Positions 1 to 42,133 of a stretch of 64,000 nucleotides of DNA are shown here, in pieces. Below the pieces are notes generated by a model. That model was not told where the DNA came from and ran no database searches. It worked only from the letters and a program-made list of their open reading frames with translations. The DNA comes from Ischnura elegans (Eukaryota > Arthropoda > Insecta > Odonata > Coenagrionidae). A program made the translations under genes and the position numbers. Location: positions 52,178,968 to 52,242,967 of the forward strand of contig NC_060257.1 of the NCBI RefSeq assembly GCF_921293095.1, read 5' to 3'. Each line of letters opens with the position of its first letter. The first letter of the stretch is position 1.

Positions 1-2011
1 ATAGAATGGAAAAAAAATGTTATGAATATTACTAATGTATCTTGTTCTTAAACTGACAATGCGAGGAAGTCCTTGAGGCCCTGAAATGGGCCCTCGACTA
101 ATAATTTCTACCGACGTGAAGTTTTACAAATACTATATATGTATAAATTTGCCTTATTAAATAGTGATAATGGTAATGCGAAGGGCTTTGCATAAGAGTC
201 ATTCCATGTTGTAAAAGAAATTCTCTACTTTTCGAATTTTACCACGTTAATATTCACCAGAAAGGGCTGTCATTTTATTTTATTAGAGCATGCGGTGGTA
301 GGTTACATGATCATCAGCCCTTCGGTTTTACATCACATTTGTTGTGATGATTATCTTCTGGTGTTTGCCGGAAATAAATTTCCCTCTTAAACTTTATTTC
401 TCTGTCTATAACCTCCGTCGAATGGCAAAAAAGAGAATAAAGAGTCGTATTTTGTTCGCAATACTCTTATTAAATTTAATAGAGAAACTTGATACATACC
501 GCTTATACAGATTATGCATTCACTGCTGATGCTATGGCGTGTTTTGATAATTACATTTGATGTGCCCTCTTTGAGCAACACTCTTCATTATCTTCCTCAT
601 TCAGCTCATCACGATCTAATGAAGGAGTATCTCCCACCGCCATCGTCCGATGCACATTTTACCTGAGCGAAGACGCCATATTTCATGCAATCTCATTTTT
701 TTTAATATTACACAACTTACTTTGCCAAATGCTCTTCATTTTATTGCTTTTAGACCTCAGTTTTAGACACTATCAATCTGTAAAATTCCTTTTCCTCTGT
801 TATTATTTACTTGGTTACCGTGGGTGATGTTTTCAATACTACGTATTTATCTTCAATTTTTTTTCATTTCTACACGACATTCCCATGTGTATCATTAACC
901 AGTGATAAATGCATTACCTATACTTCTCACGTATGTGGAAGAGTACGTTGATTAATTAGATAATCCTATCTATGCACCGTAAATGGTGCCTCATATGGTC
1001 CATACGCGGGACGTTTGTACTAATAATTATAACGTAGTAGTTAAATTAAGATAGGTAACTAAGTTTTAATATAAATATGGCCAGCGCTGATTATATACTA
1101 TTGCTGCATTTATATGATTTCAGTTTAAGGTCCATTGTGGAGGAGACTAGACCGTATGTATGGCAAGGCAGTATGTGAGTAGCCTCGAGAATTGGTGAAG
1201 TGATGGAACCCGAAACGTCGGCTGCCTTAGGTTTTCTTACCCGCGCTGAAACCCAAGGAAAGGTTATTCATTCAATCAATGCCATACACCTGTTACTTTC
1301 TCTCAGCTACTGTCACTAAGAAAAATCGTCAGGAAAGTAACTAATGCATCTGGTTCTAACGCTGACAATATGAAGAAGGCCTTTAGGATCTCCAGTGGGG
1401 CTAACGAAAAATACAGTAAATGTATCTCGGGGGTCTTAAGTATCTTTGGGGCTTTACCGGCGCGAAAGCTGATTTTTAAATATGCCCTGTAAGTGATGAT
1501 TAACTAAACCAATTTATTGAAATGTTCACACGTACGTGAGTCAATAAGGTTATTGTAATGAAATTGGTACTGTTCCATAAAATAAATATGGTAAAATGGG
1601 TGATAGGTGTACTTATAGGCTTTTGAGGTCTCATTCTCATAAATAGCTAATTGCAGAGATATATGCGTTGGTTTTTAATGAATTTTGATAAAGATAGAGG
1701 GCCATAATTTCATCTATTGGATGGATTAAATGTTAATTGTGTATTCCTTCATTCATCTCCCATACCTGAATATGTCTTCTTCATGGCATGTTGTTCCAAA
1801 TTCTTCATTTTTATCTTTAGTCGAATACAAATATTATTAAGTAACCGCTAAGTTAACAGTAGCCGATGGATTTTTATCGTTGAAATAAATACATGAGTTT
1901 TTTGCCCGTAATTAGGATAACCGTGATTTTTTTTACATATTCTGAATACATATATCTATTCTTATGTTAAAGATGTAAGCATAAGAATAACCCTATCATT
2001 TTTACTTGCTC

Positions 2012-2492
2012 GGTATTCTTATAGCTGAAAATACCAGCATAGAAGTAAGGAAACAAGTCATCAGATGCTACATATGGAGTATGTTTCTCTATGGAAGCGA
2101 GGCTTGGACGTTGACAGCAGCAGAGAAGTCAGGAGTGGAAGCATTCGAAATGTGGTGATACCGAAGAATGATGAAGATAAAATGGATTGACCGTGTGAGT
2201 AACCAGGAAGGGCTAAGGAGAGTAGGAGAAAAGAGAAGCCTCCTAAAAACATTTAGCAGAAGAAGGGACAACTTAGTTGGCCACATTTTGAGGCACGATG
2301 GTCTGATGATGACAATCGTTGAAGGACAAGTGGAAGGGAAAAAGGGCAAGGGACGGCCCCGAATGAGTTATATAGGACAGGTTTTAAAGGATGTAAAAGA
2401 GAATAAATATGTAGCTATGAAGAGATTAGCGGATAGGAGAGAGAAATGGAGAGCTGCGGCAAACCAATCTTAGGATTGCTGACTAATGATGA
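2012..2492 (+). mobile_element. LINE ORF2 C-terminal fragment in unit 1
   Basis: Plus-strand sequence encodes the end of a non-LTR retrotransposon protein: a YGSEAWTL-like motif, then FEMW..RRMMKIKWIDRVSNQE, LRRVGEKRS, GHILRHD and KGKGRPR. This pattern follows the reverse transcriptase in RTE-like LINEs. A TGA replaces a cysteine codon after FEMW, so the frame is broken here. The fragment ends in a short gatgat tail. Units 2, 4 and 6 read straight through the site (cttgctc joined to tatatgc), which gives clean empty sites. I see no target duplication. Confidence 0.75.
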
Positions 2493-3247
2493 TATATGCA
2501 TGCAAGGCAAACTGCTTCTACAAGGATGAGCTTATCTGGTCTGAAAAATATTTTCCCTCCCTACGAAGAAGCTGGTACTGAGTTAAAAAGGTAAATGTTT
2601 TAGTGTGAGTGGTTGAAATGAGGTAGGTAAAATATGTATGTTAAGGAATTTTAATGAAGATAGTATATAATTAAATACTGAGAATAGAATTTTTAATTCT
2701 TCAATTCATCAATAAAAGGTTTGCGAAAAGAGGTTTTCCGTGACAACCCCTTCCAATCTTCATTGCGTATGTAATAGGTAATAAACCTCCGTTTCTGCGT
2801 TGTTCTTTTTCAATTTGTTAAGTCTATCAAGTATTAAAATTGTCGCTTTTCATTATTCTTAAAGATAATTAGTTTAACATATGGCATAACAAAGAAGTTG
2901 TCCTTGATATAATAGAACCACTGGTGTAAAAAATGAAAATAGGTACTCACAGCGAGTGGAAAATTCATTTAAGTACATTTGTTTTTTTACTCGAGATTCA
3001 TGAGCCGCTTGGAGGACTTTTTTTCAATTATTTGCCTATATTTTTGCTTTATATTCTAGTATCCCAAAAAATGTATGCCCTAGCTCATTTTTATTCATAT
3101 ATTAAAAGTAATGGAATTACGAAAAGTATAACTCGTATGCCAAATCGATATTTTTATTGGTTAGAAGAACAATATTTTTATCGGGATGGCATCATTACAA
3201 AGAATTTTTTAATAATTTTGATTGCCAAAATAGTAGCATGGATTGCT

Positions 3248-3543
3248 TAATTATCCATTGTCAGCGACTCATCTTAAACTAATTGAGATTGCTTAGAAAT
3301 TTCTATGATGATGGCATTACTTCGTACCTCATACGAATATCCAAAACCACATAAGAAATATATAATTATTGGGATAACAAGGTTTCCGTAAGTAAAGCTG
3401 CCAACCATTGCGGCTAATGTATTGTTCAAATTTTGAAAGTATCTATGTACATGACTGGCGAGTAGATTATCAGGGGAAATAAAAATACCAATATTATTTA
3501 ATAGAGTTTTCATTAGGGCATCATCAATATTCTCTTCATCCAT
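3248..3543 (-). pseudogene. Second array frame, unit 1 copy (early stop)
   Basis: It matches the unit 3 copy closely from MDEENIDDALMK onward. A C-to-A change turns the serine codon before DESLTMDN into TAA, which removes the last nine residues. The remaining 89 codons are open. Confidence 0.3.
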
Positions 3544-3876
3544 TTACATAACTCACTCTGTGCATCAACCCGAAAATCAATTTGAACATAGTATAGTAGA
3601 CCTCACCCTCAGCCACCGACCATAATTACCTTATTTTCAGGGGAAGTTCCTTTCCTTTGACCATTTCTCTCCCTGAGAATTTACATTTTAGTTGCATTAA
3701 AGACTAAGCCGAGATTTCAAAAGGACATTATAGTTATATGCTAACCTTTATACTCCTTACCTTACCTCTCGCCATGCAAGCCATTTAGAGATCAAAGGAA
3801 TCTCTCGAGTGTCATTCATGGGTAAGGAGATTTTTAAAATAATATAAGTGAGACAAAAATTGCAGCAGACAAGAAA

Positions 3877-3921
3877 TTTTGAATGCATGCTAAACTGCAT
3901 GCTTTCAAAAAACGATTTATT
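3877..3921 (-). terminator. 3'-end module of array gene copy 1: AATAAA plus conserved hairpin
   Basis: Read on the minus strand, AATAAA (3,916-3,921) is followed 5 nt later by a 34-nt inverted repeat (3,877-3,910). Two 14-nt arms, TTTTGAAAGCATGC and its near-complement (13 of 14 pair), flank the loop AGTTTA. It lies where cleavage and polyadenylation would be expected. The same 34 nt occur without change in all six units. Confidence 0.55.
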
Positions 3922-4035
3922 TCATTTCAAAACAAAGCGAAATAGCAGAAACATTTAAATTTGAATTTAAACATTTCAAAACAATACGAAATTACACAAA
4001 CGTTGAAATTAGAATTTTGACATCAATGGTTTCAT

Positions 4036-4443
4036 TCAATTCGAGGGAATATATTCCCAGCTTTCTGATATGATGAAACCATCATTCATGATGTGTTGGC
4101 TGGATAGTGGCACACCATTTTCCAAGATGACATTCAGTTCTTCTTGCAATATCACGGGTCGACCCAAATTCTTCCATCTTTGGATGAGTACGTACAACTC
4201 TTCCATCTTGGAAGTCTTCTTTCTCGCTGCCTTTTCAGCTGGTATGACGTTATACATCCCCTCGTCCAGGTTGTATCCTCCCTGCTTCTTAATGGTGAAG
4301 TGTTGCACCTTCTCTGCATGCACGCCGGTGTCCCCTCTTCTCCGGTCGCTGATCAACGTCGTCAGGACCATCATGAGGGCACTGGATGCCAATGCCACTG
4401 CATTAGACGGCTGCAACCACTTCATCGCCTTCCGAATTCCCAT
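4036..4443 (-). CDS. Array gene, copy 1: unrecognised 135-residue protein
   Basis: I do not recognise this family. The protein starts MGIRKAMKWLQPSN, then has a hydrophobic stretch (about residues 15-31) followed by a basic RRR cluster, which suggests a membrane anchor or targeting segment. The rest (residues 40-135) is hydrophilic, rich in K and E, with a likely helix around KMEELYVLIQRWKN and no cysteine. A 5' exon ends at 4,599 with donor GAAG|GTAAG. The intron (4,598-4,466) ends in TTTCTTTACGTCTAG. The ATG lies 22 nt into exon 2 with G at +4. Copy-specific residues are G62 and L113. It is the only copy without an in-frame stop just upstream of the ATG. The 5' exon also carries a 6-codon upstream frame, ATG ACC CGA..TAC TAA. 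Poly(A) signal at 3,916-3,921. Confidence 0.6.
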   Translation of the reverse strand: MGIRKAMKWLQPSNAVALASSALMMVLTTLISDRRRGDTGVHAEKVQHFTIKKQGGYNLDEGMYNVIPAEKAARKKTSKMEELYVLIQRWKNLGRPVILQEELNVILENGVPLSSQHIMNDGFIISESWEYIPSN

Positions 4444-7167
4444 GATGGACTCCCTTGCATACGTCCTAGACGTAAAGAAAATGGAATAGAACGATAATCA
4501 ACCAGTTAAAGCTAATTACGATCTAAAAATGAAGTATTATTTAAATTATCCATCAAAAATTTGGTGACCGTCTGAAATCTGTGTCGGTCTCAACTTACCT
4601 TCCACGTAGGTATTAGAGGAAATGCGTTTCCTGCTGGGAAGAAATGGAATTCTTTCCTTTCGACGTGTTCGGTGTAGTACTCCACACACACACAATGATG
4701 GAAAGTTTCCAACAAGTATTTTGTTAGCACTGATTTACTTTATAATTCGCTTGAAATCGCAATCGACTGTTCTCGCCAATTCGCTTTCAAGTGTATCAAG
4801 TGAAGATTCCAAGAATGTATCTTAGTAACGCCCTCGGGTCATTGTTGTGGAATTAGCATGGGCTTTAAAACTAATGGAGCATATCTGCATTGCATTTCCC
4901 TTTAGGCTTGTATTTTATTTTGAATTTAGTATATTTTTTTAAATAAAAAATTGATACTTTGCGTCGTGTATTTTCGACCTGGATAGAAAATAGCGTTTAG
5001 TTTTCCGTTTTTTTAATTCTTTTTTGTGTAAAACTTTTGCGTTCAAAATTTTTAATTTAAAGTCAGCTTTATAAGTCCCAGTGATTGAATATTTCATGAA
5101 TTAACTTTTTTGTTCACGCCTTTTGTAAGGGAACGAATGTAAAAATTTCCCTTCGGAGTTGAGAAAACCACTTTTGCCTATGATGATGAACATGGCCAAA
5201 GAATAACGATTTACCATTAACGTTAAGGATCTAGAGAAATATATTACCAATAATTTCAATTGCGTACTATCACATTTAAACAATTCGGCTCTTAATTAGC
5301 TCGTTATTGTCCACGGTCAAGGATTGCTCTTGTTTCCAATTTACATGATGGTTTTAGCCGGTATACATTATCATTTTATTTCGTCATTTCTCCCACATTT
5401 CTTTGGGTAAAACATGTATTATAGCAACATATTATTTCGTCGAATTGCAAATATTCTAGCAAAATATTACTTCTTTCCTTGTTTCGGTCAGCATCATCGT
5501 GAGAATTATTAATATTCTGATTTTAAAATCCAATTCCCCCACGGTATGTTTGAGATATGCGAGGGAGCTACTTGGAACTAATTTGTTATGAATAATTTTC
5601 TAATATCTGGAATGTGTTGATCGAGGTGCTCCTGATTCGAATCTTGGATGAAGCTTTCGGACAGTCCCAAAAAAAATCTTAAAAGTGGTAGTGGGCCAGA
5701 GAACCCCCCGTGCCCTCAATGTGCGAAATTAAATCGTCTTTAGCTTAGTTTGGTTAAAACTATTCTCCCTTATGCATGCGAGCCTTAGGGTAGACTTGAA
5801 AAGGAACCGACGACCCGACCTTGTTTGTGAATTCACACGTCTTTGCCATAGTTTGGGTTTATTTCTATCCTCACCAATGCAAACCAACCCTAAGGTTGAC
5901 TCATTGATTGAGTGGTAACCATATATATGAAATAATTGAAATAATAATTATTATTTTGATTCTTTATTGTAATAAAATCGACTTCAAAACACAAACGCAA
6001 GTACAGAACACAAAGCACTTGTAAATATGTAACTTCGAGCTCCTCTGCTATGCTTCGCGTGGTTGTATGTTATCATAAAGTCCATCACGTAATGACAGTT
6101 CCCTCACCAGGTGGAGTGATTCCAGAAAGGAGTACCTTGGTTGCACCTGATTGAAATATAGAATTTACAGAATTATGGAAAGGTATAATTTATCAGATGA
6201 AATTATAGGAATGACCATTTCTTGATTTTATACTAAATCCCTATTCCGCCAAGTTACAATCACAAGTCAATGTTGGTAAGTAATTGAGTAAGAGTAAACG
6301 GATTACGTATAACAATATTCATGAAATGATATTTCTATTTGCAGTTCATTCTTTACGGCGAAAGAGGAATCGTTTCGTTCTTTGTAATCGTTACTTGCTC
6401 CTAATCGACGATTTCTTTACTAATTTCACTGGTTTACCTAGGCTTACAGATAACTTCTCTGAGTAACATAATTTGCCTTTTAAGGATCAGATACTCTTAT
6501 ATAATACAGAAGTGACAAAATATGACACCCCTTGTGTTGTTGCACAAGTCATTTGCATGTATCGAAATTGAAAAGAAAATTTATGATGTATATAGCTCCA
6601 TTTATTCACATCTTTACCTCAATATTAGACACATTACAGGCGTCCTTTAAAGAGGACATCTTACTAGAAGTTATTTTGATTATTACTGCATTTTTAATGA
6701 TTACCTACTTTTTTAAATTAGTAATTTGTATACCTGAGTGATTACTTATTATACCAAGTAACTGAAATTAAGACCAGTTACTTTTAACACTGTCAAAAGT
6801 CAACAAATAAGAATGGCATATGGAAATTGTGCATTTTCCGTCAAGTTGAAACTTTCTTTCTTTTTCTTTCTTTTTTTTTAAACTTTCCCACTTTCCCACG
6901 CCAAACCTCTCACCAGAAAATATCTTTTAATATTTTTCAAAACTTTTGATTTCATCCTATTCAATACATAACTCTAAATAGCACGGTTCCCATCACTTAA
7001 CGTATTAGTGAAAATTCTCTGGAATTTACAAAGTTCTCAGCCCGAGAAATATTTAGAATGCGGTTTTTTCATATTTAATTTCTAAATGGCATCACCAGAT
7101 ATGGGAGATACCACGGATATATTCATTACCTTTAATTCCCAGATACATAGATGGAAAATGTATTGAA

Positions 7168-8795: not shown

Positions 8796-9071
8796 TTTTA
8801 GGTCCATTGTGAAGGAGAATAGACCGCATGAATGACAAGGCAGTATGTGAGTTGCCTCGAGAAGAGGTAACGTGATGGAACCCGAAACGTCGGCTGCCTT
8901 AGATTTTCTTACCCGCGCGGAAACCTGAGAATAGGCTTTGCATTCAACTAATGCCATGTAACCTTATTTTATCTCAGCTGCTGTGTCGAGGAAAAAATTG
9001 TCAGGAAAGTAACTGATGCATCTGGTTAGTACGCTGATAATATGAAGAAGGCTTTTAGGCCATCCAGTTAT

Positions 9072-11694
9072 CATCATCTTGTGGTGTTCTGCCCGTCGGC
9101 AGGTCCCTCGCGCCAATGCAGTCTCCATTTCCTCCTGTCACCGGCCATCACCTTGGAGTCTCCATATCTTCCAATTTTTACGTGGTCAATAAACTTCAGC
9201 CTTCTCCTTCCCCTTATTCTGATCCCTTCCACCGTTCCCTCCAAAGCTACTTTCAAAATTCTATTCCCTCTCATCAAATGTCTCAGCCACTTACCCTTCC
9301 TGTATTATTATTGTCTATCAACGTTACTTTCTCATCTATCCTATTTAACACTTGCTCATTCCTAACTCGATCCGTCCACCGTATTTCCTCTTCCAATCTT
9401 CCTCTAAACCCACATTTCAAACACCCCAATCCTGTCCCTGTCTCTCTTCCCCATTGTCCAAGTCTCACATCCATACATTAACACACTCCACACATAGCAT
9501 TTCACCAATCTCTTCCTCAATTTTAATTCCAGTGCCTTGTTACACAACGCTCTTTTCTCCTTCTTGAAAACTTCTTTCGCCATTTCTATCCTTCTTTTTA
9601 TTTCTCCTATACTTTTCCAGTCTTCATTTATCAAAGTTCCCAAGTAGCTGTAGGTTCTCACATTCTGAATTTCACCTTCTTTTGTCTTCACCCTCATACC
9701 ATCTACAACTTCATTTCTCACTTTATGACTTTAGTCTTCTTAGCATTTATTTTCATTCCATATGTCTCCATTCCTTTTCATTTTCTTCCATTATACTTTT
9801 TAACCTCCGATTTAGCACTCTTAACAGGATTTTAGCAGCATGTGAAATTAAGCTGATCGTTCTACACTCGGTGCATTTTTTGGACCAGCCTTTTTAGGAA
9901 TTGGTACCATCACAATCTTTAAGAAGTCTTCCGGCCATTTCCCAGTATTACATTTATCTTTTGTTGCACAAATCCACTATCTCATTCAATACCTCTTATG
10001 TTAAACATTGAAAACTTCTATTGGAAGCTCATCCACTCCAGTAGCCTTCGTATATTTCATTTCCTGTATTGCCCTCTGCACTTCACTCTTCAGTATTGAT
10101 GACCCTTTATACACATCCTCTGCCTCGCATTCACTTTCTATATCCAATGCTTCAGGTTTTTCATCAGTTGCATATATTTCCTCTACATATTCTTTCCATC
10201 TTTCCCTTACTTCCATTTGTTCGCATATCATTTTACCTTCCTTATCTTCAACCTCTCTAATTCTTGCTCTACCTCTCTTTTCCTCCCATGCAATATCCTT
10301 TACCTTCTTATACTCTAAATCATATTGCCCTTTTCTCTCTAATTCTTCCAAAACTTCACAATCGCTTGATAACCATTTCTCCTTCGCCTTCTGTGTTTCC
10401 CTTTTCAGCTCATTGTTTAATTTCTTGTATATAGCACAAGCATACTCTCCGGACTTATTCTAAGATGTCCTCCTCTCTTTTATTTTAGCTAACATTCCTT
10501 CTGTCACCCATCGTTTCTTTGGTGTCATCGTCTATTGCTGTTTTCAACATACCGTTCTTTATTCTTTCCCATGTCACAGCGCTGTTTTCATCCTGGACTT
10601 TTCATTCTGTTATTGCCTATGAAAACTTACTACCTATAGATTCCTGTATTTCCTTCACCCTTTCCATATTCCACTTCCTAACCGTTTTCGCTTCTCCCAA
10701 TTTCTTTAATCTTACTCTTACTTCCATCATTAGAAGTGCAAGATCGCTGTTAATATCTGCTCCTGATAGGCCTTTTACTTTCTTCACCGTATTCTTACAT
10801 CTTTCTTCCTCTATAATATAGTGAATTTGATAATGCCATTTATTTACTGGCGATATCCATGCGTATCTTCTTCTTTTCGGATTTTCAAAAAAGGTATTTG
10901 CTGTAACTATCTTATCCTCCCTGCAAAACTCTATTAATTTTTCTCCTCTGTCGTTCCTTTTCCCCAATTCAAAGTTTCCAACTACTCCACCTTCTCCAAC
11001 TAGAGCATTCCAATCTCCCATTATTATCTTACAGCAGGTCACCTCATCTTTAAATGCCCTCTCTATTTTCTCATATACCCTTTCAATGTCTTCATCGCTG
11101 TAAGCTGATGTTGGCATATATACTTGGGTTATCATTAAATCTTTTGACAGCATTTTAAATTCTTAACACTATTAATCTATCATCTATAAATGAAACCTTC
11201 TGTACACACTTGGCTATCCTATTCTTCATAATTATTCCTACTCCGTTTCTCCCTAACTGATTCCCTGTAAAAAACAAGGTATTTTTATCACTGGTAATTT
11301 ACCCTTGGCCCTTACATTTCACTTCACTCTATCCTATTAAAGCCATCTTGTTTATGTCCATCTATTTTTTGAGGTTTTCCACTTTGTAACAATGTCCTAA
11401 CATTCCACGTTCATATCCTCAACTTTTGATGTCTTTTCTGATGCATAATCTCTTGATGCTTCCGCCGGAGATCCGAATGGGAAGCTATTTTACCTCCGGA
11501 ATATTTAACATAAGAAATCAGCATCAGAGCGCTATTCAAGGGAAATCCAGACGGATAATTAATGAAGTGGTTTCCCGTTGCCTTCTCCATCCTATGCCAT
11601 TGGCCATCTAGTGGCTCATCTGCCTTTGGGGATGGTTTCCCATCCCTCGGGCAAGAGATTGCCCTATACCTCTAACTGCTCATCCGCTCTCCAG
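9072..11694 (-). mobile_element. RTE-like LINE, internally deleted, inserted in unit 2
   Basis: Read on the minus strand: a 5' part with gagaaggcaacgggaaaccac, then the C-terminal half of an exonuclease/endonuclease/phosphatase-type endonuclease (11,153-10,617; IMGDWNALVGEGG, then RRRYAWISPVNKWHYQIHYI), a linker (about 10,463-10,001), the start of the reverse transcriptase (RTISLISHAAKIL-like, near 9,870), and the C-terminal region (9,721-9,074; YSYLGTLI, CYVWSVLMYGCETWT). The catalytic core of the reverse transcriptase is missing: the sequence jumps near 9,770 from LNRRLKSIMEE to YGMKINAKKTK. Several frame breaks occur. The 3' end is a gatgat-type tail. Unit 1 reads ctccagtggggctaac across the site, and tccag is present at both ends. 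RTE assignment is from family knowledge and is moderate. Confidence 0.8.
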
Positions 11695-13961: not shown

Positions 13962-14007
13962 TTTTGAATGCATGCTAAACTGCATGCTTTCAAAAAAATG
14001 TTTTATT
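13962..14007 (-). terminator. 3'-end module of array gene copy 2
   Basis: Hairpin 13,962-13,995, identical to copy 1. The spacer to the AATAAA (14,002-14,007) is one base longer here, so the hairpin is fixed while its surroundings shift. Confidence 0.55.
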
Positions 14008-14121: not shown

Positions 14122-14529
14122 TCAATTGGAGGGAATACATTCCCAGCTTTCAGATATAATGAAACCATCATTCATGATGTGTTGGCTGGATATTGGTACA
14201 TCATTTTCCAAGATGACATTTAGTTCTTCTTGCAATATCACGGGTCGCCCCATATTCTTCCATCTTTGGATGAGTACGTACAACTCTTCCATCTTGGAAG
14301 TCTTCCTTTTCACTGCCTTTTCAGCTGGTATGACGTTAAACATCGCCTCGTCCAGGTTGTATCCTCCCTGCTTCTCAATGGTGAAGTGTTGCACCTTCTC
14401 TGCATGCACGTTGGGGTCCCCTCTTCTCCGGTCGCTGATCAACGTCGTCAGGACCATCATGAGGGCACTGGATGCAAAATCCATTGCATTAGATGGCTGC
14501 AACCACTTCATTGCCTTCCGAATTCCCAT
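14122..14529 (-). CDS. Array gene, copy 2: unrecognised 135-residue protein
   Basis: Same architecture as copy 1. The 5' exon ends at 14,699, the intron spans 14,698-14,552, and a TGA lies in frame 19-21 nt before the ATG, which supports this start. Of the six copies this one has the most changes in the hydrophobic N-terminal part (M16, D17, F18, which place an acidic residue in the stretch) and in the following loop (P39, N40, E52, F64, V73). The stop codon and 3' region are intact with AATAAA at 14,002-14,007. It may be evolving more freely or have a different role. Function unknown. Confidence 0.6.
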   Translation of the reverse strand: MGIRKAMKWLQPSNAMDFASSALMMVLTTLISDRRRGDPNVHAEKVQHFTIEKQGGYNLDEAMFNVIPAEKAVKRKTSKMEELYVLIQRWKNMGRPVILQEELNVILENDVPISSQHIMNDGFIISESWECIPSN

Positions 14530-16724
14530 GATGGACTTCCTTGCTCACGCCCTAGATGAAAAGAAAATAGAATTGAACGATAAAAACCCAGTAAGAGCTA
14601 ATATCGCTCTCAAAATGGAGCATTCTTTAAATTAGCAAGATAAAATAGTTGACCGAGGAAAATTATCCGTCTGAAATCTTTGTCGGTCTCAAACTTACCT
14701 TCCACGTAGTTATTAGAGCAAATGCGTTTCTTGTCGGGAGGAAATGGAATTCTTTCCTTTCCACGTGTTCAGTGTAGTACTCCACACACACACAATGATG
14801 GAAAGTTTCCAACAAGTATTTTGTTAGCACTGAATTACTTTATAATTCGCTTGAAATCGCAATCGACTGTTCTCGCCAATTCGCTTTCAAGTGCATCAAG
14901 TGAAGATTCCAAGAATGTATCTTAGTAACGAGCTCGGGTCATTGTTGTGGAATTAGGATGGGCTAAAACCTAATGGAGCATATCTGTATTGTATTGCCCT
15001 TTAGGCTAGTATTTTATTTTGAATTCAGTATATTTTTTTAATAGAATGGATAGTAAATAACGTTTAGTTTTCCATTTTTTTTGCGTAAAAATTTTGCGTT
15101 CAAAATTTTTAAATTAAAGTTAGCTTTTTGAGTCCCATGTGATTTAATATTTGATGAATTTACTTCTTTTGTCACACATTTTCTAAGGGAACGAAAGTAA
15201 AAATTTCCCTTCGGTGTTGAGGAAACCACTGTTGCCTATCCTTGTTGAACATAGGCGAAGAATAACGGTACACCATTGACGTTAAAGATATAGAAAAATA
15301 TATTACCATTTATTTGAATTGTAAAGCATCACATTCGAAGAATTTTGCACCTTATTATCTCGTTGTTTTCCGTGGGCTGTATTTCCTCATGTTTCCAATT
15401 TGCGTGATGGTTTAAACCGGCATTCATTAGCATTAATTGTCATGATTTCTCTCACATTTCTTTGGGTAAAATATGTATTATAGCAACATATTCTAACCTC
15501 GAATTGCATATATTCTAGCAAAATATTACTTATTTCCTTGTTTCGGTCAGCATCATCATGAGAGATATTAAAATTCCGATTTTCAAATCCTATTCCCCCA
15601 CGCTAGCGCCATGTATGAAATATGCGAGGGAGCTACTTGGAACAAATTTGTTATCAATAATTTTCTCATAACTGGAATGTGTTGATCGAGGTGGTCCTGG
15701 TTGGAATCCTAGGTGAAGCTTTCGGACAGTCCCATAAAAAAATCTTCAAAGTGGAGGTCGGCCAGGTAACCCCCCTGCCCTGAATGTGCGAAATTAAATC
15801 ATCTTAAGCTTAGTTTGGTTAAAACTATTCTCCCTTATGCATGCGAGCCCTAGGGTTGACTTGGAAAGGAACCGATGACCCGAACCTGATTGGGAATTCA
15901 CACGCCTTTGCCATTGTTCGGGTTTATTTACATCCTCACCAATGAAAAACCAACCCTAGGGTTGACTCACTGTTTGAGTGGTAACCATATATATGAAATG
16001 ATTGAAATAATTATTATTATTATGATTCTTTATTCTAATAAAATCGACTTCAAAACATTAACGCAAGTACAGAACACAAAGCACTTGTAAATATGTAGTT
16101 TCAAGTTACTCTGCTATGCTTCGCGTGGTTGTAGATCATCAGAGAGTCCTTCAGGTAATTAGAATCCCTCACCAGGTGGAGTGATTCCAGAAAGAAGTGC
16201 CTTGGTTGCACCTGATTGAAATATAGAATTTACAGAATTATGGAAAGGTATAAATTATCAGAAAAAAATATAGGAATGACCATTTCTTGGTTTTATATGA
16301 AATCCCTATTCCAACAAAGTTACAATCACAAGTCAATGTTGGTAAATAATTGAGTAAGAGTTATCGGATTACGTGTAACAATATTCATGAAATGTTATTT
16401 CTATTTGCAGTTCCCTCTTTACGGCGAAAGAGGAATCGTTACGTTCGTTGTAATCGTTACTTGCTCCTAATCGACGATTTCTTTACTAATTTCACTGGTT
16501 TACCTAGGCTTACAGATAACTTCCCTGAGTAACATAATTTGCCTGTTAAGGATCAGATACTCTAATATAATACTGAAGTTACAAAATATGACACCCCTTG
16601 TGTTGTTGCACAAGTCATAATTGCATGTATCGAAATTGAAAAGACAATCTGCGATTTCTATAGCTCCTTTTATTCACATATTTACCTCAATATTCGACAC
16701 ATGCAGGCGGCCTTTGAACAGGAC

Positions 16725-17029
16725 GGGTGAACCGGAGTTTAGCCCCTTGGCGTATTGGCGGCGGTTTCTAGAACTATTTTTTGGTTTGGGTTGGGTTGGT
16801 TTGGGTTGGGTTGCGTTAGTTTGGGTTTAGTTGGTTTGGGTTGGGATGGTTTGGTTTGGGTTGGGTCGGTTTGGGTTGGGTCGGTTTTTGCTTTAATAAC
16901 AAATAATATTTGATAAAATTTATGATTTGTTGATAAAATTTTGTAACCATTGCGCGCGGGAAAAATAGCTCTAGAAACCGCCGCCAATACACCGATTGGC
17001 GAATAAGGGGCTTAAATTCCGGTCGCGCC
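16725..17029. mobile_element. 305-bp MITE with 58-bp inverted ends and 8-bp target duplication
   Basis: Both ends carry aacaggac (16,717-16,724 and 17,030-17,037), an exact 8-bp duplication of a site that is single in unit 1. The terminal inverted repeats share ACCGGA.TTTA, GCCCCTT and GTATTGGCGGCGGTTTCTAG. The middle has about 110 bp of ggtttgggttggg-type repeats followed by AT-rich DNA. An 8-bp duplication fits hAT or P-type elements. There is no coding capacity. It is present only in unit 2, so it is younger than the split from its nearest sister unit. Confidence 0.85.
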
Positions 17030-19980: not shown

Positions 19981-20462
19981 GGTATTCTTATAGCTGAAAA
20001 TACCAGCATAGAAGTAAGGAAACAAGTCATCAGATGCTACATATGGAGTTTGTTTCTCTATGGAAGCGAGGCTTGGACGTTGACAGCAGCAGAGAAGTCA
20101 AGAGTGGAAGCATTCGAAATGTGGTGCTACCGAAGAATGATGAAGATAAAATGGATTGACCGTGTGAGTAACCAGGAAGTGCTGAGAAGAGTGGGGGAAA
20201 AGATTAGTCTCCTGAAAACCTTAAGTAGAAGAAGGGACAACTTAGTTGGCCACATTTTGAGGCACGATGGTCTGATGAAGACAATCGTTGAAGGACAAGT
20301 GGAAGGGAAAAAGGGCAAGGGACGGCCCCGAATGAGTTATATAGGACAGGTTATAGAGGATGTAAAAGAGAATAAATATGTAGCTATGAAGAGATTAGTG
20401 GATAGGAGAGAGAAATGGAGAGCTGCGTCAAACCAATCTTAGGATTGTTGACTAATGATGAT
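19981..20462 (+). mobile_element. LINE ORF2 C-terminal fragment in unit 3 (frame open)
   Basis: Same insertion at the same site as in unit 1, so both descend from one insertion that was then duplicated. Here the frame is open through the whole fragment (155 codons counting a little flanking DNA) and the TGC cysteine codon is kept. Reverse transcriptase core and endonuclease are absent. It ends QS before TAG and a gatgat tail. Confidence 0.75.
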
Positions 20463-21842: not shown

Positions 21843-21887
21843 TTTTGAATGCATGCTAAACTGCATGCTTTCAAAAAAAGATTTATT
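21843..21887 (-). terminator. 3'-end module of array gene copy 3
   Basis: Hairpin 21,843-21,876, identical to the other copies, 5 nt beyond AATAAA (21,882-21,887). Confidence 0.55.
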
Positions 21888-22000: not shown

Positions 22001-22408
22001 TCAATTGAAGGGAATACATTTCCAGCTTTCAGATATAATGAAACCATCATTCATGATGTGTTGGCTGGATATTGGCACATCATTTTCCAAGATGACATTT
22101 AGTTCTTCCTGCAATATCACGGGTCGCCCCATATTCTTCCATCTTTGGATGAGTGCGAACAACTCTTCCATCTTGGAAGTCTTCCTTTTCGCTGCTTTTT
22201 CAGCTGGTATGACGTTGTACATCGCCTCGTCCAGGTTGTATCCTCCCTGCTTCTTAATGGTGAAGTGCTGCACCTTCTCTGCATGCACGCTGGTGTCCCC
22301 TCTTCTCCGGTCGCTGATCAACGTCGTCAGGACCATCATGAGGGCACTGGATGCCAATGCCACTGCATTAGATGGCTGCAACCACTTCATTGCCTTCCGA
22401 ATTCCCAT
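22001..22408 (-). CDS. Array gene, copy 3: unrecognised 135-residue protein
   Basis: The frame is intact, with the 5' exon ending at 22,579, the intron at 22,578-22,431 and an in-frame TGA just upstream of the ATG. Copy-specific residues are F84, K130 and F134; A85 is shared with copies 4 and 6, and M93 with copy 2. The gene and its 5' exon resemble copy 2 most, although the DNA upstream in the window (its 3' side) resembles unit 1. That mixture points to exchange between copies. AATAAA at 21,882-21,887. Confidence 0.6.
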   Translation of the reverse strand: MGIRKAMKWLQPSNAVALASSALMMVLTTLISDRRRGDTSVHAEKVQHFTIKKQGGYNLDEAMYNVIPAEKAAKRKTSKMEELFALIQRWKNMGRPVILQEELNVILENDVPISSQHIMNDGFIISESWKCIPFN

Positions 22409-23036
22409 GATGGACTTCCTTGCTCACGCCCTAGATTAAAAGGAAAATAGAATAGAACGATAAAAACCCAGTAACAGCTAATAACGCTCTCAAAATGGAG
22501 CATTCTTTAAATTAGCAAGATAAAATAGTTGACCGAGGAAAATTATCCGTCTGAAATCTTTGTCGGTCTCAAACTTACCTTCCACGTAGTTATTAGAGCA
22601 AATGCGTTTCTTGTCGGGAAGAAATGGAATTCTTTCCTTTCTACGTGTTCAATGTAGTACTCCACACACACACAATGATGGAAAGTTTCCAACAAGTATT
22701 TTGTTAGCAATGAATTACTTTATAATTCGCTTGAAATCGCAATCGACTGTTCTCGCCGATTCGCTTTCAAGTGCATCAAGTGAAGATTCCAAGAATGTAT
22801 CTAAGTAACGAGCTCGGGTCATTGTTGTGGATTTAGCATGGGCTTAAAACCTAACGGAGCATTATATCTGCGTTGCATTACCCATCAGGTTTGTCTTTTA
22901 TCTTGAAATTAATATTATTTTAATACAATTTTGATTCATTGCCTCGTTTATGTCCGACCAGGAATTGAAATCACGTTTCATTTTCCAATTTATAAAGTGT
23001 CTATTTAAAGAAAGTATTTGCCTTCAATATTTTATA

Positions 23037-29270: not shown

Positions 29271-29320
29271 TTTTGAATGCATGCTAAACTGCATGCTTTC
29301 AAAAGGAGATTTATTTTATT
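29271..29320 (-). terminator. 3'-end module of array gene copy 4
   Basis: Hairpin 29,271-29,304, identical to the other copies. Two overlapping AATAAA signals precede it, and the spacer differs in sequence (a gga triplet in place of the a-run seen in copies 1-3). Confidence 0.55.
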
Positions 29321-29429
29321 TCAAAACATAACGAAATAATTGAAATATTTAAATTTGAATTTAAACATTTCAAAACAACACGAAATTACAGAAACGTTGA
29401 TATTAGAATTTTGACATCAATGGTTTCAT

Positions 29430-29837
29430 TCAAATGGAGGGAATATATTCCCAGCCTTCAGATATAATGTTACCATCATTCATGATGTGTTGGCTGGATA
29501 TTGGCACATCATTTTCCAAGATGACATTCAGTTCTTCTTGCAATATCACGGGTCGTCCCAAATTCTTCCATCTTTGGATGAGTGCGTATAACTCTTCCAT
29601 CTTGGAAGTCTTCTTTCTCGCTGACTTTTCAGCTGGTATGATGTTATACATCGCCTCGTCCAGGTTGTATCCTCCCTGCTTCTTAATGGTGAAGTGTTGC
29701 ACCTTCTCTGCATGCACGCTGGTGTCCCCTCTTCTCCGGTCGCTGATCAACGTCGTCAGGACCATCATGAAGGCACTGGACGCCAATGCCACTGCATTAG
29801 AGGGCTGCAACCACTTCATCGCCTTCCGAATTCCCAT
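29430..29837 (-). CDS. Array gene, copy 4: unrecognised 135-residue protein
   Basis: The frame is intact. The 5' exon ends at 29,992 with donor AAAG|GTAAGC and the intron spans 29,991-29,860. Changes are F23, I66, S72, N123, G128 and I135, so the otherwise fixed C-terminus (DGFIISESWE.IPSN) is least conserved here. In this copy alone the 5' exon is open in one frame for about 88 codons, because a TAA present in the others reads GAA. That frame has no ATG and I treat it as chance. Two AATAAA signals lie at 29,310-29,320. Confidence 0.6.
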   Translation of the reverse strand: MGIRKAMKWLQPSNAVALASSAFMMVLTTLISDRRRGDTSVHAEKVQHFTIKKQGGYNLDEAMYNIIPAEKSARKKTSKMEELYALIQRWKNLGRPVILQEELNVILENDVPISSQHIMNDGNIISEGWEYIPSI

Positions 29838-30235
29838 GATGGACTTCTTTGCTTACGTCCTAGACGTAAAGAAAATGGAAAGAACGATAAACAACCAGTG
29901 AAAGCTAATTACGCTCTCAAAATGAAGTATTATTTAAATTATCCAGTTAATATTTGGTGACCGTCTGAAATCTGTGTCGGTCTCAGCTTACCTTTCACGT
30001 AGGTATTAGAGGAAATGCGTTTCCTGCTGGGAAAAAATGGAATTCTTTCCTTTCGACGTGGTCGGTGTAGCACTCCACACACACACAATGATGGAAAGTT
30101 TCCAACAAGTATTTGGTTAGCACTGAATTCCTTTATAATTCGCTTGCAATCGCAATCAGCTGTTCTCGCCAATTCGCTTTCAAGTGAATCGAGTGAAGAT
30201 TCCAAGAATGTATCTTAGTAACGCCGTCGGGTCAT

Positions 30236-30637
30236 TGTTGTGGAGTTAGCATTGGCTTATAGCCCATACCTTATGGTGTGTTCCGTTTTAATTGGTTGCG
30301 CTTTATATTGAATTTATTCTACAATAAATATTTTTAATATATTTATGAAGTATATAATTCAGATCCTTTTTCTTTGGTCTTATGGCGAGTAGGATATTCT
30401 GTATGTATAGAAAAACATTTTTTTTTTGTATGAAAAGACGCACCCGAGGAACTTTAAATGCTGCACACTTATTTATTTCAACATGAAGGTTGATTTTAAT
30501 TTGTAGGTATAGAGCTTGCCCTGATATTAAGAACAGGCGTGTGAATTACGCATAATCTCTATCATTTCAAGCTTTTTTCTCTGAGGACACCCTAAATAAG
30601 AGGTTTTCCGTGGAGAATTCCGAAGGTTTTCTTGACA
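30236..30637. repeat. Copy of the right flank of the array, placed after unit 4
   Basis: About 400 bp match 41,745-42,133 with roughly 20 substitutions and a few small length changes. The match starts gcccataccttatggtg and ends at ttttcttgaca. Directly after it the sequence continues as the interior of a unit (cagtatgggagtagc). No gene is visible in it. Confidence 0.8.
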
Positions 30638-33078: not shown

Positions 33079-33123
33079 TTTTGAATGCATGCTAAACTGC
33101 ATGCTTTCAAAAGGAGATTTATT
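33079..33123 (-). terminator. 3'-end module of array gene copy 5
   Basis: Hairpin 33,079-33,112, identical to the other copies, with AATAAA at 33,118-33,123. The spacer is the gga version, as in copy 4. Confidence 0.55.
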
Positions 33124-33237
33124 TCATTTTAAAACAAAGAGAAATAGCAGAAACATTTAAATTTGAATTTAAACATTTCAAAACAATACGAAATAACACA
33201 AACGTTGAAATTAGAATTTTGACATCAATGGTTTCAT

Positions 33238-33645
33238 TCAATTGGAGGGTATACATTCCCAGCTTTCAGATATAATGAAACCATCTTTCATGATGTGTTG
33301 GCTGGATATTGGCACACCATTTTCCAAGATGACATTCAGTTCTTCTTGCAATATCACGGGTCGCCCCAAATTCTTCCATCTTTGGATGAGTACATACAAC
33401 TCTTCCATCTTGGAAGTCTTCCTTTTCGGTGCTTTTTCAGCTGGTATGACGTTATACATCGCCTCGTCCAGGTCGTATCCTCCCTGCTTCTTAATGGTGA
33501 AGTGTTGCACCTTCTCTGCATGCACGCCGGTGTCCCCTCTTCTCCGGTCGCTGATCAACGTCATCAGGACCATCATGAGGGCACTGGATGCCAATGCCAC
33601 TGCATTAGATGGCTGCAACCACTTCATTGCCTTCCGAATTCCCAT
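33238..33645 (-). CDS. Array gene, copy 5: unrecognised 135-residue protein
   Basis: The frame is intact although it lies in the most diverged unit. The 5' exon ends at 33,801 and the intron spans 33,800-33,668. A TAA lies in frame just upstream of the ATG. Copy-specific residues are M28, P73 and K120, with D58 shared with copy 6. The upstream mini-frame in the 5' exon is cut to ATG ACC TGA here. AATAAA at 33,118-33,123. An undamaged frame in a unit whose flanks are full of length changes is the best single argument that the protein is under selection. Confidence 0.62.
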   Translation of the reverse strand: MGIRKAMKWLQPSNAVALASSALMMVLMTLISDRRRGDTGVHAEKVQHFTIKKQGGYDLDEAMYNVIPAEKAPKRKTSKMEELYVLIQRWKNLGRPVILQEELNVILENGVPISSQHIMKDGFIISESWECIPSN

Positions 33646-34261
33646 GATGGACTCCCTTGCTTACGCCCTAGACGTAAAGAAAATGGAATAGAACAATAAT
33701 CAACCAGTTAAAGCTAATTACGCTCTCAAAATGAAGTATTCTTTAAATTAGCCAGTTAAAATTTGTTGACCGTCTGAAATCTTTGTCGATCTGAACTTAC
33801 CTTCCACGTAGGTATTAGAGCAAACGTGTTCCTTGTAGGGAAGAAATGGAATTCTTTCCTTTCGACGTGTTCGGTGTAGTACTCCACACACACACAATGA
33901 TGGAAAGTTTCCAACAGGTATTTTGTTAGCACTGAATTACTTTATAATTCGCTTGAAATCGCAATCGACTGTTCTCGCCAATTCGCTTTCAAATGCATCA
34001 AGTGAAGATTCCAAGAATGTATCTTAGTAACGCCCTCAGGTCATTGTTGTGGAATTAGAATGGGCTTTAAACCTATAACGGAGCATTACATCTGCGTTGC
34101 ATTACCCTTCAGGTTTGTCTTTTATCTTGAAATTAATATAATTTCAATAAAATTTTGATTCATTGCATCGTTTATGTCCGACCAGGAATTGAAATCACGT
34201 TTCATTTTCCAATTTTTAAAGTGTCTATTTTAAGTAAAGTATTGGCCTTCAATATTTTATA

Positions 34262-34975
34262 TTATAAAGTTAGCTTTTTCAGCCCTAGCGAATGAATATT
34301 TGATGAATGTACTTCCTGATTCACCCTTCTCTAAGGAAACGAATGTGAAAAATTTTCCTTCGGAGTTGAGAAAACAACATTAGCTAGCCATGAAGAACAT
34401 TTCCGCGGAATAAATATTTACTAATAACGTTAAGGACAAAGAGAAATATTTTACTCTTCATTTCATTTGTGCATCATCATATTCAAAGAGTTTATACAAC
34501 GGTACTGCACTTTGTTAACTCGTTATTTTCCACGTGCAGTAATTCATAGTATTTCCAATTAACATATTGATTTTTTTACCGGTACACATTAAAAATTGGC
34601 GTTTAAAGTTAAACATTATAGTGTAACCTTTTTGAATCCTAGCGATTGAATATTTGATGAATTTAGTTCTTGGTTCACGCCTTCTCTAAGGGAACGAATG
34701 TAAACATTTCCCTTCGGTGTTGAGGAAACAACTGTTGCCCATCCTTGATGAACATATCCGCAGAGCAACGATTTACCATTGACGTTAAGGATATAGAGAT
34801 ATATATTACCATTCATTTCAATTTTGTAGTAACACATTCGAAGAATATGGCACTTTATTATCTCGTTATTTTCCACGGGCAGTGATTCCTCGTGTTTCCA
34901 ATTTACGTGATGGTTTTAACCGGTATTAATTAGCATTTAGTGTCCTGATTTCTCTCACATTTCTTTGCGTAAAAC
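34262..34975. repeat. Internal tandem duplication (about 355 bp) in unit 5
   Basis: It starts near 34,262 and 34,617 and is nearly identical to the pair in unit 3. The duplication therefore happened once, before the common ancestor of these two segments was copied. Confidence 0.75.
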
Positions 34976-37239: not shown

Positions 37240-37735
37240 TTTAAATTCACCTTAAAAATAGTGCGAAGGGTTTTTGCATAAGGGTCATTCCATGTTTATA
37301 AAAATTCCTCAACTTTTCGAAAGGTAACACGTTGTTACTCACTAGTAAGGGCTGTCATTGTCTTTTATTGTAGCATGCGGTATTAGGTTACATGATCACC
37401 AGCCTTTCGCTCTTACATCACTTTTGTCGTGATGATTATCTCCTGGTGTTTGCCGAACATGATTTTCCCTTTTCCCATGATTTATATGTTTAAATTTGCC
37501 TTATTATATAGTGATAATGGTAATGCGAAGGACTTTGCATAAGAGTCATTCCATGTTGTAAAATAAATTCTTTACTTTTCGAATTTCAACACGTTAATAC
37601 TCACCAGAAATGGCTGTCATTTTATTTTACTGGGGCATGCGGTGGTAGGTTACATGATCACCAGCCTTTCGCTCTCACATTACTTTTGTCGTGATGATTA
37701 TCTCCTGGTGTTTGCCGAACATGATTTTCCCTCTT
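37240..37735. repeat. Local 245-bp duplication near the start of unit 6
   Basis: The sequence from about 37,240 to 37,480 is repeated in diverged form at about 37,481-37,735. Both copies contain catgcggt..taggttacat, gatcaccagcctttcgctc and gtgtttgccgaacatgat. The second copy resembles unit 1-type sequence at its left end, as expected for an exchange junction between two unit versions. Confidence 0.65.
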
Positions 37736-40130: not shown

Positions 40131-40425
40131 AATTATCCATTGTCAGCGACTCATCTGAAACTAATTGAGATTGCTTAGAAATTTCCATGATGATGGCATT
40201 TCTTCGTACCTCATACGAATATCCAAAACCACATAATATATATATAATTATTGGGATAACAAGGTTTCCGTAAGTAAAGCTACCAACCATTGCGGCTATG
40301 TATTGTTCAAATTTTGAAAGTATCTATGTACAATGACTGGCGGGTAGAATATCAGGGGAAATTAACATACCAATATTATATAATAGAGTTTTCATTAGGG
40401 CATCATCAATATTCTCTTCATCCAT
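40131..40425 (-). pseudogene. Second array frame, unit 6 copy (several small length changes)
   Basis: Recognisable over its whole length, but single-base gains and losses in at least three places break the frame. In unit 5 the same region (about 32,440-32,700) is more decayed, and in unit 2 most of it has been replaced. Confidence 0.3.
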
Positions 40426-40758
40426 TTACATAACTCACTCTGTGTATCAACTCGAAAATCGATTTGAACATTGGATAGTAGACCTCACCCTCAGCGACCG
40501 AAAATAATTACCTTGTTTTCAGGAGAAGTTTCTTTCCTTTGTCGGTTTATATCTCCCTGAGAATTTACATTGTAGTTACATGAGCAACCCAGCCTAGATT
40601 AACGGGCACCTTATAGTTATATGCTAAACTTTATACTCCTTACCTTACCTCTCGCCGTGCAAGCCATTTAGAGATCAATAGAATCTCTTGAGTGTCATTC
40701 ATGGGTAAGAGATTTTTAAAATAAAATAAGTGAGACAAAAATTGCGGCAGACAAGAAA

Positions 40759-40803
40759 TTTTGAATGCATGCTAAACTGCATGCTTTCAAAAAACGATTT
40801 ATT
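40759..40803 (-). terminator. 3'-end module of array gene copy 6
   Basis: Hairpin 40,759-40,792, identical to the other copies, with AATAAA at 40,798-40,803 and the same spacer as copy 1. Confidence 0.55.
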
Positions 40804-40917
40804 TCATTTCAAAACAAAGCGAAATAGCAGAAACATTTAAATTTGAATTTAAACATTTCAAAACAATACGAAATTACACAAACGTTGAAATTAGAATTTC
40901 GACATCAATGGTTTCAT

Positions 40918-41325
40918 TCAATTGGAGGGAATATATTCCCAGCCTTCAGATATAATGAAACCATCATTCATGATGTGTTGGCTGGATATTGGCACATCAT
41001 TTTCCAAGATGACATTCAGTTCTTCTTGCAATATCACGGGTCGCCCCAAATTCTTCCATCTTTGGATGAGTGCGTACAACTCTTCCATCTTGGAAGTCTT
41101 CTTTCTCGCTGACTTTTCAGCTGGTATGACGTTATACATCGCCTCGTCCAGGTCGTATCCTCCCTGCTTCTTAATGGCGAAAAGCTGCACCTTCTCTGCA
41201 TGCACGCTGGTGTCCCCTCTTCTCCGGTCGCTGATCAACGTCGTCAGGACCATCATGAGGGCACTGGATGCCAATGCCACTGCATTAGATGGCTGCAACC
41301 ACTTCATTGCCTTCCGAATTCCCAT
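40918..41325 (-). CDS. Array gene, copy 6: unrecognised 135-residue protein
   Basis: The frame is intact at the right edge of the array. The 5' exon ends at 41,481 and the intron spans 41,480-41,348. Changes are L48, A50, D58, S72, A85 and G128; S72, A85 and G128 are shared with copy 4. A base-by-base comparison with copy 1 gave about ten amino-acid-changing and about seven silent differences. That is fewer changing differences than expected by chance but not strong constraint. AATAAA at 40,798-40,803. Confidence 0.6.
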   Translation of the reverse strand: MGIRKAMKWLQPSNAVALASSALMMVLTTLISDRRRGDTSVHAEKVQLFAIKKQGGYDLDEAMYNVIPAEKSARKKTSKMEELYALIQRWKNLGRPVILQEELNVILENDVPISSQHIMNDGFIISEGWEYIPSN

Positions 41326-41744
41326 GATGGACTTCCTTGCTTACGTCCTAGACGTAAAGAAAATGGAATAAAACGATAATCAATCAGTGAAAGCTAATTA
41401 CGCTCTAAAAATGAAGTATCATTTAAATTAGTCAGTTAAAATTTGGTGACCGTCAGAAATCTGTGTCGGTCTCAACTTACCTTCCACGAAGGGATTAGAG
41501 GAAATTCGTTTCCTGCTGGGCAGAAATGGAATTCTTTCCTTTCGACGTGTTCGGTGTAGTACTCCACACACACACACAATGATGGAAAGTTTCCAACAAG
41601 TATTTTGTTAGAGCTGAATTACTTTATAATTCGCTTGCAATCGCAATCGACTGTTCTCGCCAATTCGCTTTCAAGTGAATCGAGTGACGATTCCAAGAAT
41701 GTATCTTAGTAACGGGCTCGGGTCATTGTTGTGGAATTAGCATG

Positions 41745-42133
41745 TGGTTATAGCCCATACCTTATGGTGCGTTCCGTTTTAATTGATTGCGCTTTATATT
41801 GAATTTATTCTACAATAAATATTTTTAATATATTTATGAGTTGAATCGTATATAATTCGGATTCTTTTTTTTGGTCTTATGGCGACTAGGATATTCTGTA
41901 TGTATAGAAAAACATATTTTTTGTATGAAAAGACAAACCCGAGGAACTTTAAATGCTGCACACTTATTTATTTCAACATGAAGGTTGATTTAAATTTGTA
42001 GGCATAGAGCTTGCCCTGATATTAAGTACAGACGTGTGAATTCCGCATAATCTCTTTCAGTTCAAGCTTTTTTCTCTGAGGATACCCAAAATAAGAGGTT
42101 TTCCGTGGAGAATTCGAAGGGTTTTCTTGGCAT
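41745..42133. other. Right flank of the array (source of the copy at 30,236)
   Basis: This follows unit 6 and continues into DNA not repeated in the window after cttggca. It is the likely original of the segment after unit 4. AT-rich, no gene visible. Confidence 0.7.

What the first reader, a model, noticed from the sequence alone, without database searches (positions are those of the whole stretch)
1..42133. Six-copy tandem gene array encoding an unrecognised 135-residue protein
Seen directly: six minus-strand frames of identical length (4036, 14122, 22001, 29430, 33238, 40918), none broken, inside units whose other sequence has many length changes. Each has the same 5' non-coding exon, intron, stop and AATAAA. 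The protein has a hydrophobic segment at residues 15-31 between basic residues and no cysteine, and I cannot place it in any family. A tandem family kept intact this way may serve dosage or diversification.
Basis: partly seen in the sequence, partly recalled or inferred. Interest (0 to 1): 0.75.

Follow-up and report, generated by a model that had tools for sequence, protein, structure and literature searches.

The report
Damselfly gene family with shared promoter
Six similar small genes in a row on a damselfly chromosome look like real, selectively kept genes belonging to a much larger family of small, probably membrane-anchored proteins that share one unusual on-switch across most of the chromosomes.

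Summary
Six intact 135-codon minus-strand frames lie exactly where stated, each with a non-coding first exon, GT-AG intron, TGA and AATAAA. The genome is Ischnura elegans ioIscEleg1.1, chromosome 12. The array is a small part of the family: at least 26 loci, 23 intact, on chromosomes 12 and 3 and a small scaffold, plus a chromosome-5 remnant. Omega over the 23 intact copies is 0.42; neutrality is rejected.

The new point is regulatory. A 35-bp block lies 358-446 bp before every intact copy. In 1.72 Gb, 55 sites match it with up to 3 mismatches; the reversed control finds 0. Of these, 48 lie 358-854 bp upstream, same strand, of a member of this family or of a dissimilar family mainly on chromosome 4. 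Four more protein types carry the block, two with a one-base deletion. Representatives of all six types have an N-terminal hydrophobic segment and no Pfam match above cut-off. Best reading: a superfamily of small N-anchored proteins under one conserved promoter. Expression and role are untested; male germ line is my leading guess.

The parts
4806..4847 (-). shared promoter block, copy 1
4738..4746 (-). TATA-like ATTATAAAG, copy 1
   Evidence: motif recalled
4466..4598 (-). 5'UTR intron GT..AG, copy 1
4036..4443 (-). CDS 135 aa, copy 1
3916..3921 (-). AATAAA, copy 1
14906..14947 (-). shared promoter block, copy 2
14838..14846 (-). TATA-like, copy 2
14552..14698 (-). 5'UTR intron, copy 2
14122..14529 (-). 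CDS 135 aa, copy 2
14002..14007 (-). AATAAA, copy 2
22786..22827 (-). shared promoter block, copy 3
22718..22726 (-). TATA-like, copy 3
22431..22578 (-). 5'UTR intron, copy 3
22001..22408 (-). CDS 135 aa, copy 3
21882..21887 (-). AATAAA, copy 3
30199..30240 (-). shared promoter block, copy 4
30131..30139 (-). TATA-like, copy 4
29860..29991 (-). 5'UTR intron, copy 4
29430..29837 (-). CDS 135 aa, copy 4
29315..29320 (-). AATAAA, copy 4
34008..34049 (-). shared promoter block, copy 5
33940..33948 (-). TATA-like, copy 5
33668..33800 (-). 5'UTR intron, copy 5
33238..33645 (-). CDS 135 aa, copy 5
33118..33123 (-). AATAAA, copy 5
41690..41731 (-). shared promoter block, copy 6
41622..41630 (-). TATA-like, copy 6
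41348..41480 (-). 5'UTR intron, copy 6
40918..41325 (-). CDS 135 aa, copy 6
40798..40803 (-). AATAAA, copy 6

Best explanation
Each copy is a functional gene of a damselfly superfamily of small proteins. Layout (read from sequence): a 35-42 bp proximal block CAACAATGACC-N5-CCGTTACTA-N3-TACATTC-TTGGAAT; about 60 bp on, a TATA-like site; a non-coding exon 1; a GTAAG..AG intron; an intronless CDS; AATAAA. Inferred: a sequence-specific factor (unknown) binds the block and drives the members in the same cells; the spliced mRNA encodes a protein held in a membrane (ER or mitochondrial outer membrane) by its one N-terminal hydrophobic segment, residues 15-31, flanked by basic residues, with a soluble tail of about 100 residues; copy number rises by tandem and segmental duplication while purifying selection keeps frames, splice sites and promoter. 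Leading guess for where: male germ line (about 0.4 on its own).
For: Omega 0.417 over 23 intact copies, 2*deltalnL 52.8 against omega=1. Mean pairwise identity over the 23: CDS 0.895, TATA region plus exon 1 0.866, 3'UTR 0.868, intron 0.755; donor GTAAG in 23 of 23, acceptor AG in 22 of 23. Block: 6 of 6 in the window, 0 in 100 shuffles; 55 genome sites at up to 3 mismatches, reversed control 0; 48 of 55 lie 358-854 bp upstream of a same-strand family-A or family-C match, and 24 of 26 family-A loci, all 23 intact ones included, have it. Two distant members found by protein similarity alone, D (E 7e-4) and F (E 0.2), then proved to carry the block with a one-base deletion and a downstream GTAAG. 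Families B and C repeat the layout with different tails. Hydrophobic segment near the N terminus in 7 of 7 representatives of six types.
Against: No transcript evidence could be obtained. Block and gene duplicate together, so the 48 of 55 are not independent. D and F miss the fixed-spacing pattern (7 and 9 mismatches) and match only when a one-base deletion is allowed. Only 20-33 N-terminal columns link A or D to C (hhalign E 0.0017 and 4.6e-4, probability 16 and 33) and nothing convincing links A to B (E 0.027). Type E shows no GTAAG donor in the stretch fetched. The AlphaFold model is unusable (pLDDT 38). Three of 26 A loci are broken, one intact copy (L026) has lost its acceptor AG, many family-C matches are broken. 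The germ-line guess rests on analogy; the MYB-like core is exact in 39 of 55 sites but 1 of 6 window copies.
Confidence: 0.72

Rival explanations
1. The array is a mobile or repeat element whose ORF is carried along; the shared block is part of the element, not a promoter.
For: Members lie on many chromosomes; a LINE-like and a piggyBac-type fragment lie in the window.
Against: No Pfam domain, so no transposase or RT, in the six window proteins. Homology between copies starts at many different points (from about -450 to beyond -5 kb relative to the ATG), not at fixed ends. The intron is retained at dispersed sites, so they are not retrocopies. Omega 0.42. Terminal repeats and target-site duplications were not searched.
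Confidence: 0.08
2. The genes are real but secreted: the hydrophobic segment is a cleaved signal peptide and the tails are secreted effectors (immune, seminal or cuticular).
For: Short proteins, N-terminal hydrophobic segment with basic residues before it in A, multigene array.
Against: Arg/Lys runs follow the segment closely in families A, B and C (SDRRR, GQRRQSK, WQKRNKR), which argues against cleavage and translocation (established knowledge); cysteines are scarce (0-1 in the six window proteins).
Confidence: 0.17
3. The family lost its function recently: the array is a set of decaying duplicates, and the low omega reflects past constraint.
For: Window-only omega 0.52 with 2*deltalnL 5.3; 3 of 26 A loci broken, one intact copy without acceptor AG; family C has many broken matches.
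Against: 23 of 26 frames intact with mean dS 0.23 among the intact; only whole-codon indels in them; promoter, splice sites and AATAAA kept in step.
Confidence: 0.07

Closest known systems
Testis-expressed amplified gene families of insects (e.g. Drosophila Stellate, Mst(3)CGP; recalled)
   Same: Short intact ORFs in tandem clusters and dispersed copies, a shared regulatory sequence
   Different: Not compared by sequence here; expression unknown; no listed hit on the X, which proves nothing as chromosome 6 has none either; a long block common to dissimilar proteins
Mitochondrial outer-membrane signal-anchored proteins such as TOM20 (recalled)
   Same: N-terminal Ala/Gly-rich hydrophobic segment followed by Arg/Lys, soluble tail
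   Different: No MAS20 (TOM20) Pfam hit for any of the six types
Single-copy paralogue D, C3:133283270-133283722 (this genome)
   Same: MKW-x-x-P-[AS]-N-A-V-A motif, block (one base shorter), GTAAG donor, AG acceptor, intronless CDS; hhalign E 1.7e-8
   Different: 151 aa, 28% identity over 102 columns, N-terminal extension, single copy in this assembly

Membership tests
MAS20/TOM20 | MAS20 profile match | tested here: not met
   hmmscan against Pfam at E<=10: no MAS20 hit for types A-F
Transposable element | transposase, RT or integrase domain in the ORF | tested here: not met
   0 Pfam families for 6 of 6 window ORFs
Transposable element | fixed element ends shared by dispersed copies | tested here: not met
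   homology ends vary from copy to copy
Transposable element | terminal repeats and target-site duplications | not tested
   not searched
Testis-expressed amplified family | many similar intact ORFs in clusters | tested here: met
   23 intact of 26 loci
Testis-expressed amplified family | testis-restricted expression | not testable with these tools
   no RNA data available
Testis-expressed amplified family | sex-chromosome bias | tested here: inconclusive
   listed hits fall on C1-C5, C7-C12 and C103 only, so none on what I infer to be chromosome 6 or the X (sizes); the X's contig number was not seen
N-anchored membrane protein | one hydrophobic segment near the N terminus | tested here: met
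   7 of 7 representatives, Kyte-Doolittle mean 1.66-2.12 over 17 residues, next best stretch at most 0.67; membrane location itself untested
Superfamily with shared block | block CAACAATGACC-N5-CCGTTACTA-N3-TACATTC upstream on the same strand | tested here: met
   24 of 26 A loci, all 23 intact ones included

The most novel reading that the evidence does not exclude
An odonate gene superfamily (at least six protein types, roughly 60 or more loci on eleven chromosomes) is defined less by its proteins, which have diverged almost beyond recognition, than by one long, highly conserved composite promoter block. It would be a dedicated germ-line or tissue-specific regulon that recruits and diversifies small membrane-anchored proteins.
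Probability: 0.4. Interest if true: 0.72.

Novelty: new variant of a known kind. Interest (0 to 1): 0.56.

Why it matters
Promoters usually turn over faster than the proteins they drive (general knowledge). Here a 35-bp block stays within 3 of 27 mismatches in families A and C, and recognisable in four more types, while the proteins diverge to 26-28% identity or beyond detection. That makes the block a handle: it found members that protein search missed, and it should lead to one transcription factor and one tissue. It gives a concrete case for studying how small-protein families grow in Odonata.

Tried and rejected
Family placement by sequence: Pfam at E<=10 gave nothing for the six window ORFs, L026, L056 and type E. 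Sub-threshold hits for other members (Phage_holin_10, bPH_1, RAC_head, AGH, DUF308, DUF7394, Curto_V2; E 0.005-0.34) lie below their cut-offs and were not used. PHROGs, 5 proteins: family C two hits of unknown function (E 3.6e-4, 0.0034) over the hydrophobic and acidic stretch, family B one at 0.051, A, D and F none at 0.1; read as composition. PDB: nothing for A, E and F; lowest E 0.58 for B, C and D. Viral contigs: 17 pattern hits, none confirmed by tblastn. AlphaFold on the six window proteins: pLDDT 38, so no fold search was made.

Antisense frames of 133-158 aa overlap all six CDSs. I rejected them as genes: their lengths vary, and the homology to D, the splice sites and AATAAA belong to the minus strand.

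MYB/SOX idea: CCGTTA is the reverse complement of TAACGG, which fits the MYB consensus YAAC[G/T]G (passage in PMC2797782); AACAATG fits a recalled SOX consensus (47 of 55 sites). CCGTTA is exact in 39 of 55 sites but in 1 of 6 window copies; kept as a weak lead only. A search of PMC11840104 for a SOX30 motif gave no motif.

X depletion as support for germ-line expression: rejected as uninformative, since chromosome 6 has no listed hit either.

L065, L066 and L067 carry the block; L065 and L067 have a GTAAG donor and L066 a GTGAG; no clear CDS was found in the 1.3 kb fetched. L052 (C12:48552135) has the block and some downstream similarity but no CDS match.
Full report
What is there. The six ORFs are at the stated coordinates, minus strand, 135 codons, TGA. 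Each gene has, from 5' to 3': a 42-bp block; a TATA-like ATTATAAAG about 60 bp on; a non-coding exon 1; an intron of 132-148 nt with GTAAG and CTAG; 22 nt of 5'UTR; the CDS; AATAAA 109-114 nt past the stop. The remark 'no cysteine' is true of 3 of 6 copies. The spacing is irregular, and repeated stretches between units are rearranged and 74-93% alike. Start site and splicing are read from sequence only.

Which genome. The window is C12:52178968-52242967 of a 1,722,721,009-base assembly in 110 contigs. So C12 is chromosome 12, C3 chromosome 3, and so on; other contig numbers are inferred by order.

How large the family is. tblastn of the genome with copy 22001 gives 28 matches, which I resolve to 26 loci: 17 on C12 (49.2-54.5 Mb), 5 on C3 (9.5-13.1 Mb), 3 on C103, 1 on C5. 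In the window and the fetched DNA 23 have an intact frame of 134-136 codons; C103:9101, C12:52691225 and C5:100746 are broken or partial. The tool states that its counts are lower bounds. A second query, family member L024, gave the same loci plus one distant one.

Is it kept by selection? Over the 23 intact copies (the 3 broken ones dropped) NG86 dN/dS is 0.40 (253 pairs; 7 pairs above 1) and 0.48 for the 15 window pairs, one above 1. The codon model gives omega 0.417; fixing omega at 1 costs 26.4 log units. For the window alone omega is 0.52 and the cost is 2.7 units at the same kappa, so the case rests on the wider family. By segment dN/dS is 0.26 (codons 1-36), 0.39 (37-75), 0.27 (76-100) and 0.55 (101-133). 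Mean pairwise identity ranks CDS 0.895, 3'UTR 0.868, TATA region plus exon 1 0.866, intron 0.755; gap fraction is 0.003 in the CDS and 0.124 in the intron; GTAAG is kept in 23 of 23 and the acceptor AG in 22 of 23.

A relative outside the array. A divergent member used as query found C3:133283312 (E 7e-4, 26% identity) with an open 156-codon frame. Its 151-aa product D matches the family profile at E 1.7e-8 over 102 columns, probability 95, and shares MKW-x-x-P-[AS]-N-A-V-A. It has no close copy.

The promoter block. DNA search with the 442 bases upstream of the ATG found short matches at C5:129582684 and C7:112621920 confined to the distal block. Searching with the C5 stretch found six sites of a second family, B, on C2, C5, C7 and C12. 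Three fetched copies (C2, C7, C12) have intact 112-aa frames with the same exon layout and AATAAA. The C5 copy has no in-frame ATG ahead of its exon-2 frame; the fetched C7:112591783 copy diverges past exon 1, its coding match lying just beyond the fetch; C7:112621906 shows none. An exact pattern gave 37 sites with 0 in the reversed control and exposed a third group, C, on chromosomes 4 and 8. C encodes a 122-aa protein beginning MKWPSGTTAIALVTGAMLIAGGAIGAICYWQKRNKRS; 3 of 4 stretches fetched hold an intact frame, the fourth (C8) has its match 5.8 kb from the block. tblastn with C gives 46 matches on many contigs, a good part broken or partial.

With up to 3 mismatches the fixed-spacing pattern has 55 sites in 1.72 Gb and none in the reversed control. 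24 lie 358-446 bp upstream of a family-A match and 24 lie 470-854 bp upstream of a family-C match, same strand; 7 have neither within range. Of those 7, one precedes a new 71-aa frame E (C3:133266952), one is the family-A-like block without CDS (C12:48552149), one is the C8 site with its match 5.8 kb on, three were fetched and show no clear CDS (L065-L067), and one (C9:86826439) was not fetched. Not every family-C match has a block: 12 of 39 C matches entered have none within 1.3 kb. In the window the block occurs six times, once per gene, 0 expected. Copies share descent, so these are not 48 independent events. The independent check is D and F: both were found by protein similarity alone, and both carry the block once a one-base deletion and variable gaps are allowed (scores 24 and 23 of 27 against a maximum of 19 in 30 shuffles each) and a GTAAG donor. 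With the fixed spacing they have 7 and 9 mismatches.

What the proteins look like. Each of seven representatives (six types, two of C) has its best hydrophobic stretch within residues 5-41 (17-residue mean 1.66-2.12), and no other stretch above 0.67. Basic residues follow it closely in A, B and C. Between types mostly N-terminal resemblance is left: A-C E 0.0017 (20 columns), D-C 4.6e-4 (33 columns); F-B E 1e-4 over 100 columns, probability 57; A-B 0.027, not convincing (each E is for one comparison). I therefore claim a shared block for all six, the shared exon layout for A, B, C, D and F (E shows no GTAAG donor in the stretch fetched), protein homology for A-D, probably F-B, and only likely homology for the rest.

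Mechanism. Shown in sequence: conserved block, spacing to the CDS, exon layout, selection. Inferred: the block is bound by one factor and sets a shared expression pattern; the proteins are N-anchored in a membrane. Guessed: male germ line, by analogy with other amplified small-protein families (recalled). The rows listed by my searches of the paper library (6-10 rows each) show nothing on this family; beyond PMC9975421 and passages of PMC2797782 and PMC11840104 I saw only listings, so I do not claim that it is absent from print or from the species' gene annotation, which I could not see.

Verdict. The finding is right about real, constrained genes and too small in scope. The most useful result is the shared block, which can be tested directly against RNA-seq.

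Noticed in passing
window 56135-56736: A 602-bp stretch matches its own reverse complement at 97.5% (long near-perfect palindrome, fold-back element-like).
   Followed up: no
window 54640-55290 and 56636-56983, minus strand: The first frame matches Methyltransf_32 (E 2.3e-10), the second has no Pfam match: possibly exons of a METTL25-like gene (name recalled) beside the array.
   Followed up: no
window 51232-51546: Transposase fragment (DDE_Tnp_1_7, E 4e-17), piggyBac-type by recall.
   Followed up: no
window 10617-11153, 2168-2473, 20119-20442: A weak endonuclease/RT match below cut-off (E 0.0024) and two copies of a frame that looks like a LINE C-terminal piece (recalled resemblance) in the spacers.
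   Followed up: no
window 16781-16881: Imperfect (TTGGG)20 tract, a variant-telomere-like pentamer.
   Followed up: no
L055, L056, L057 (C2, C7, C12): Family B: 112-aa protein MACT[LF]FGA[LI]KL..., same promoter block and exon layout as the window genes; five protein matches of 83-100% in the genome.
   Followed up: partly
L059, L060, L062, L068 (C4, C9): Family C: 118-122-aa protein, amplified mainly on chromosome 4 (110-127 Mb), with many broken matches.
   Followed up: partly
L064 (C3:133266103-133266315) and L063+L049 (C3:133283270): Two different block-bearing genes (E, 71 aa, and D, 151 aa) lie 17 kb apart on opposite strands, possibly an old cluster.
   Followed up: partly
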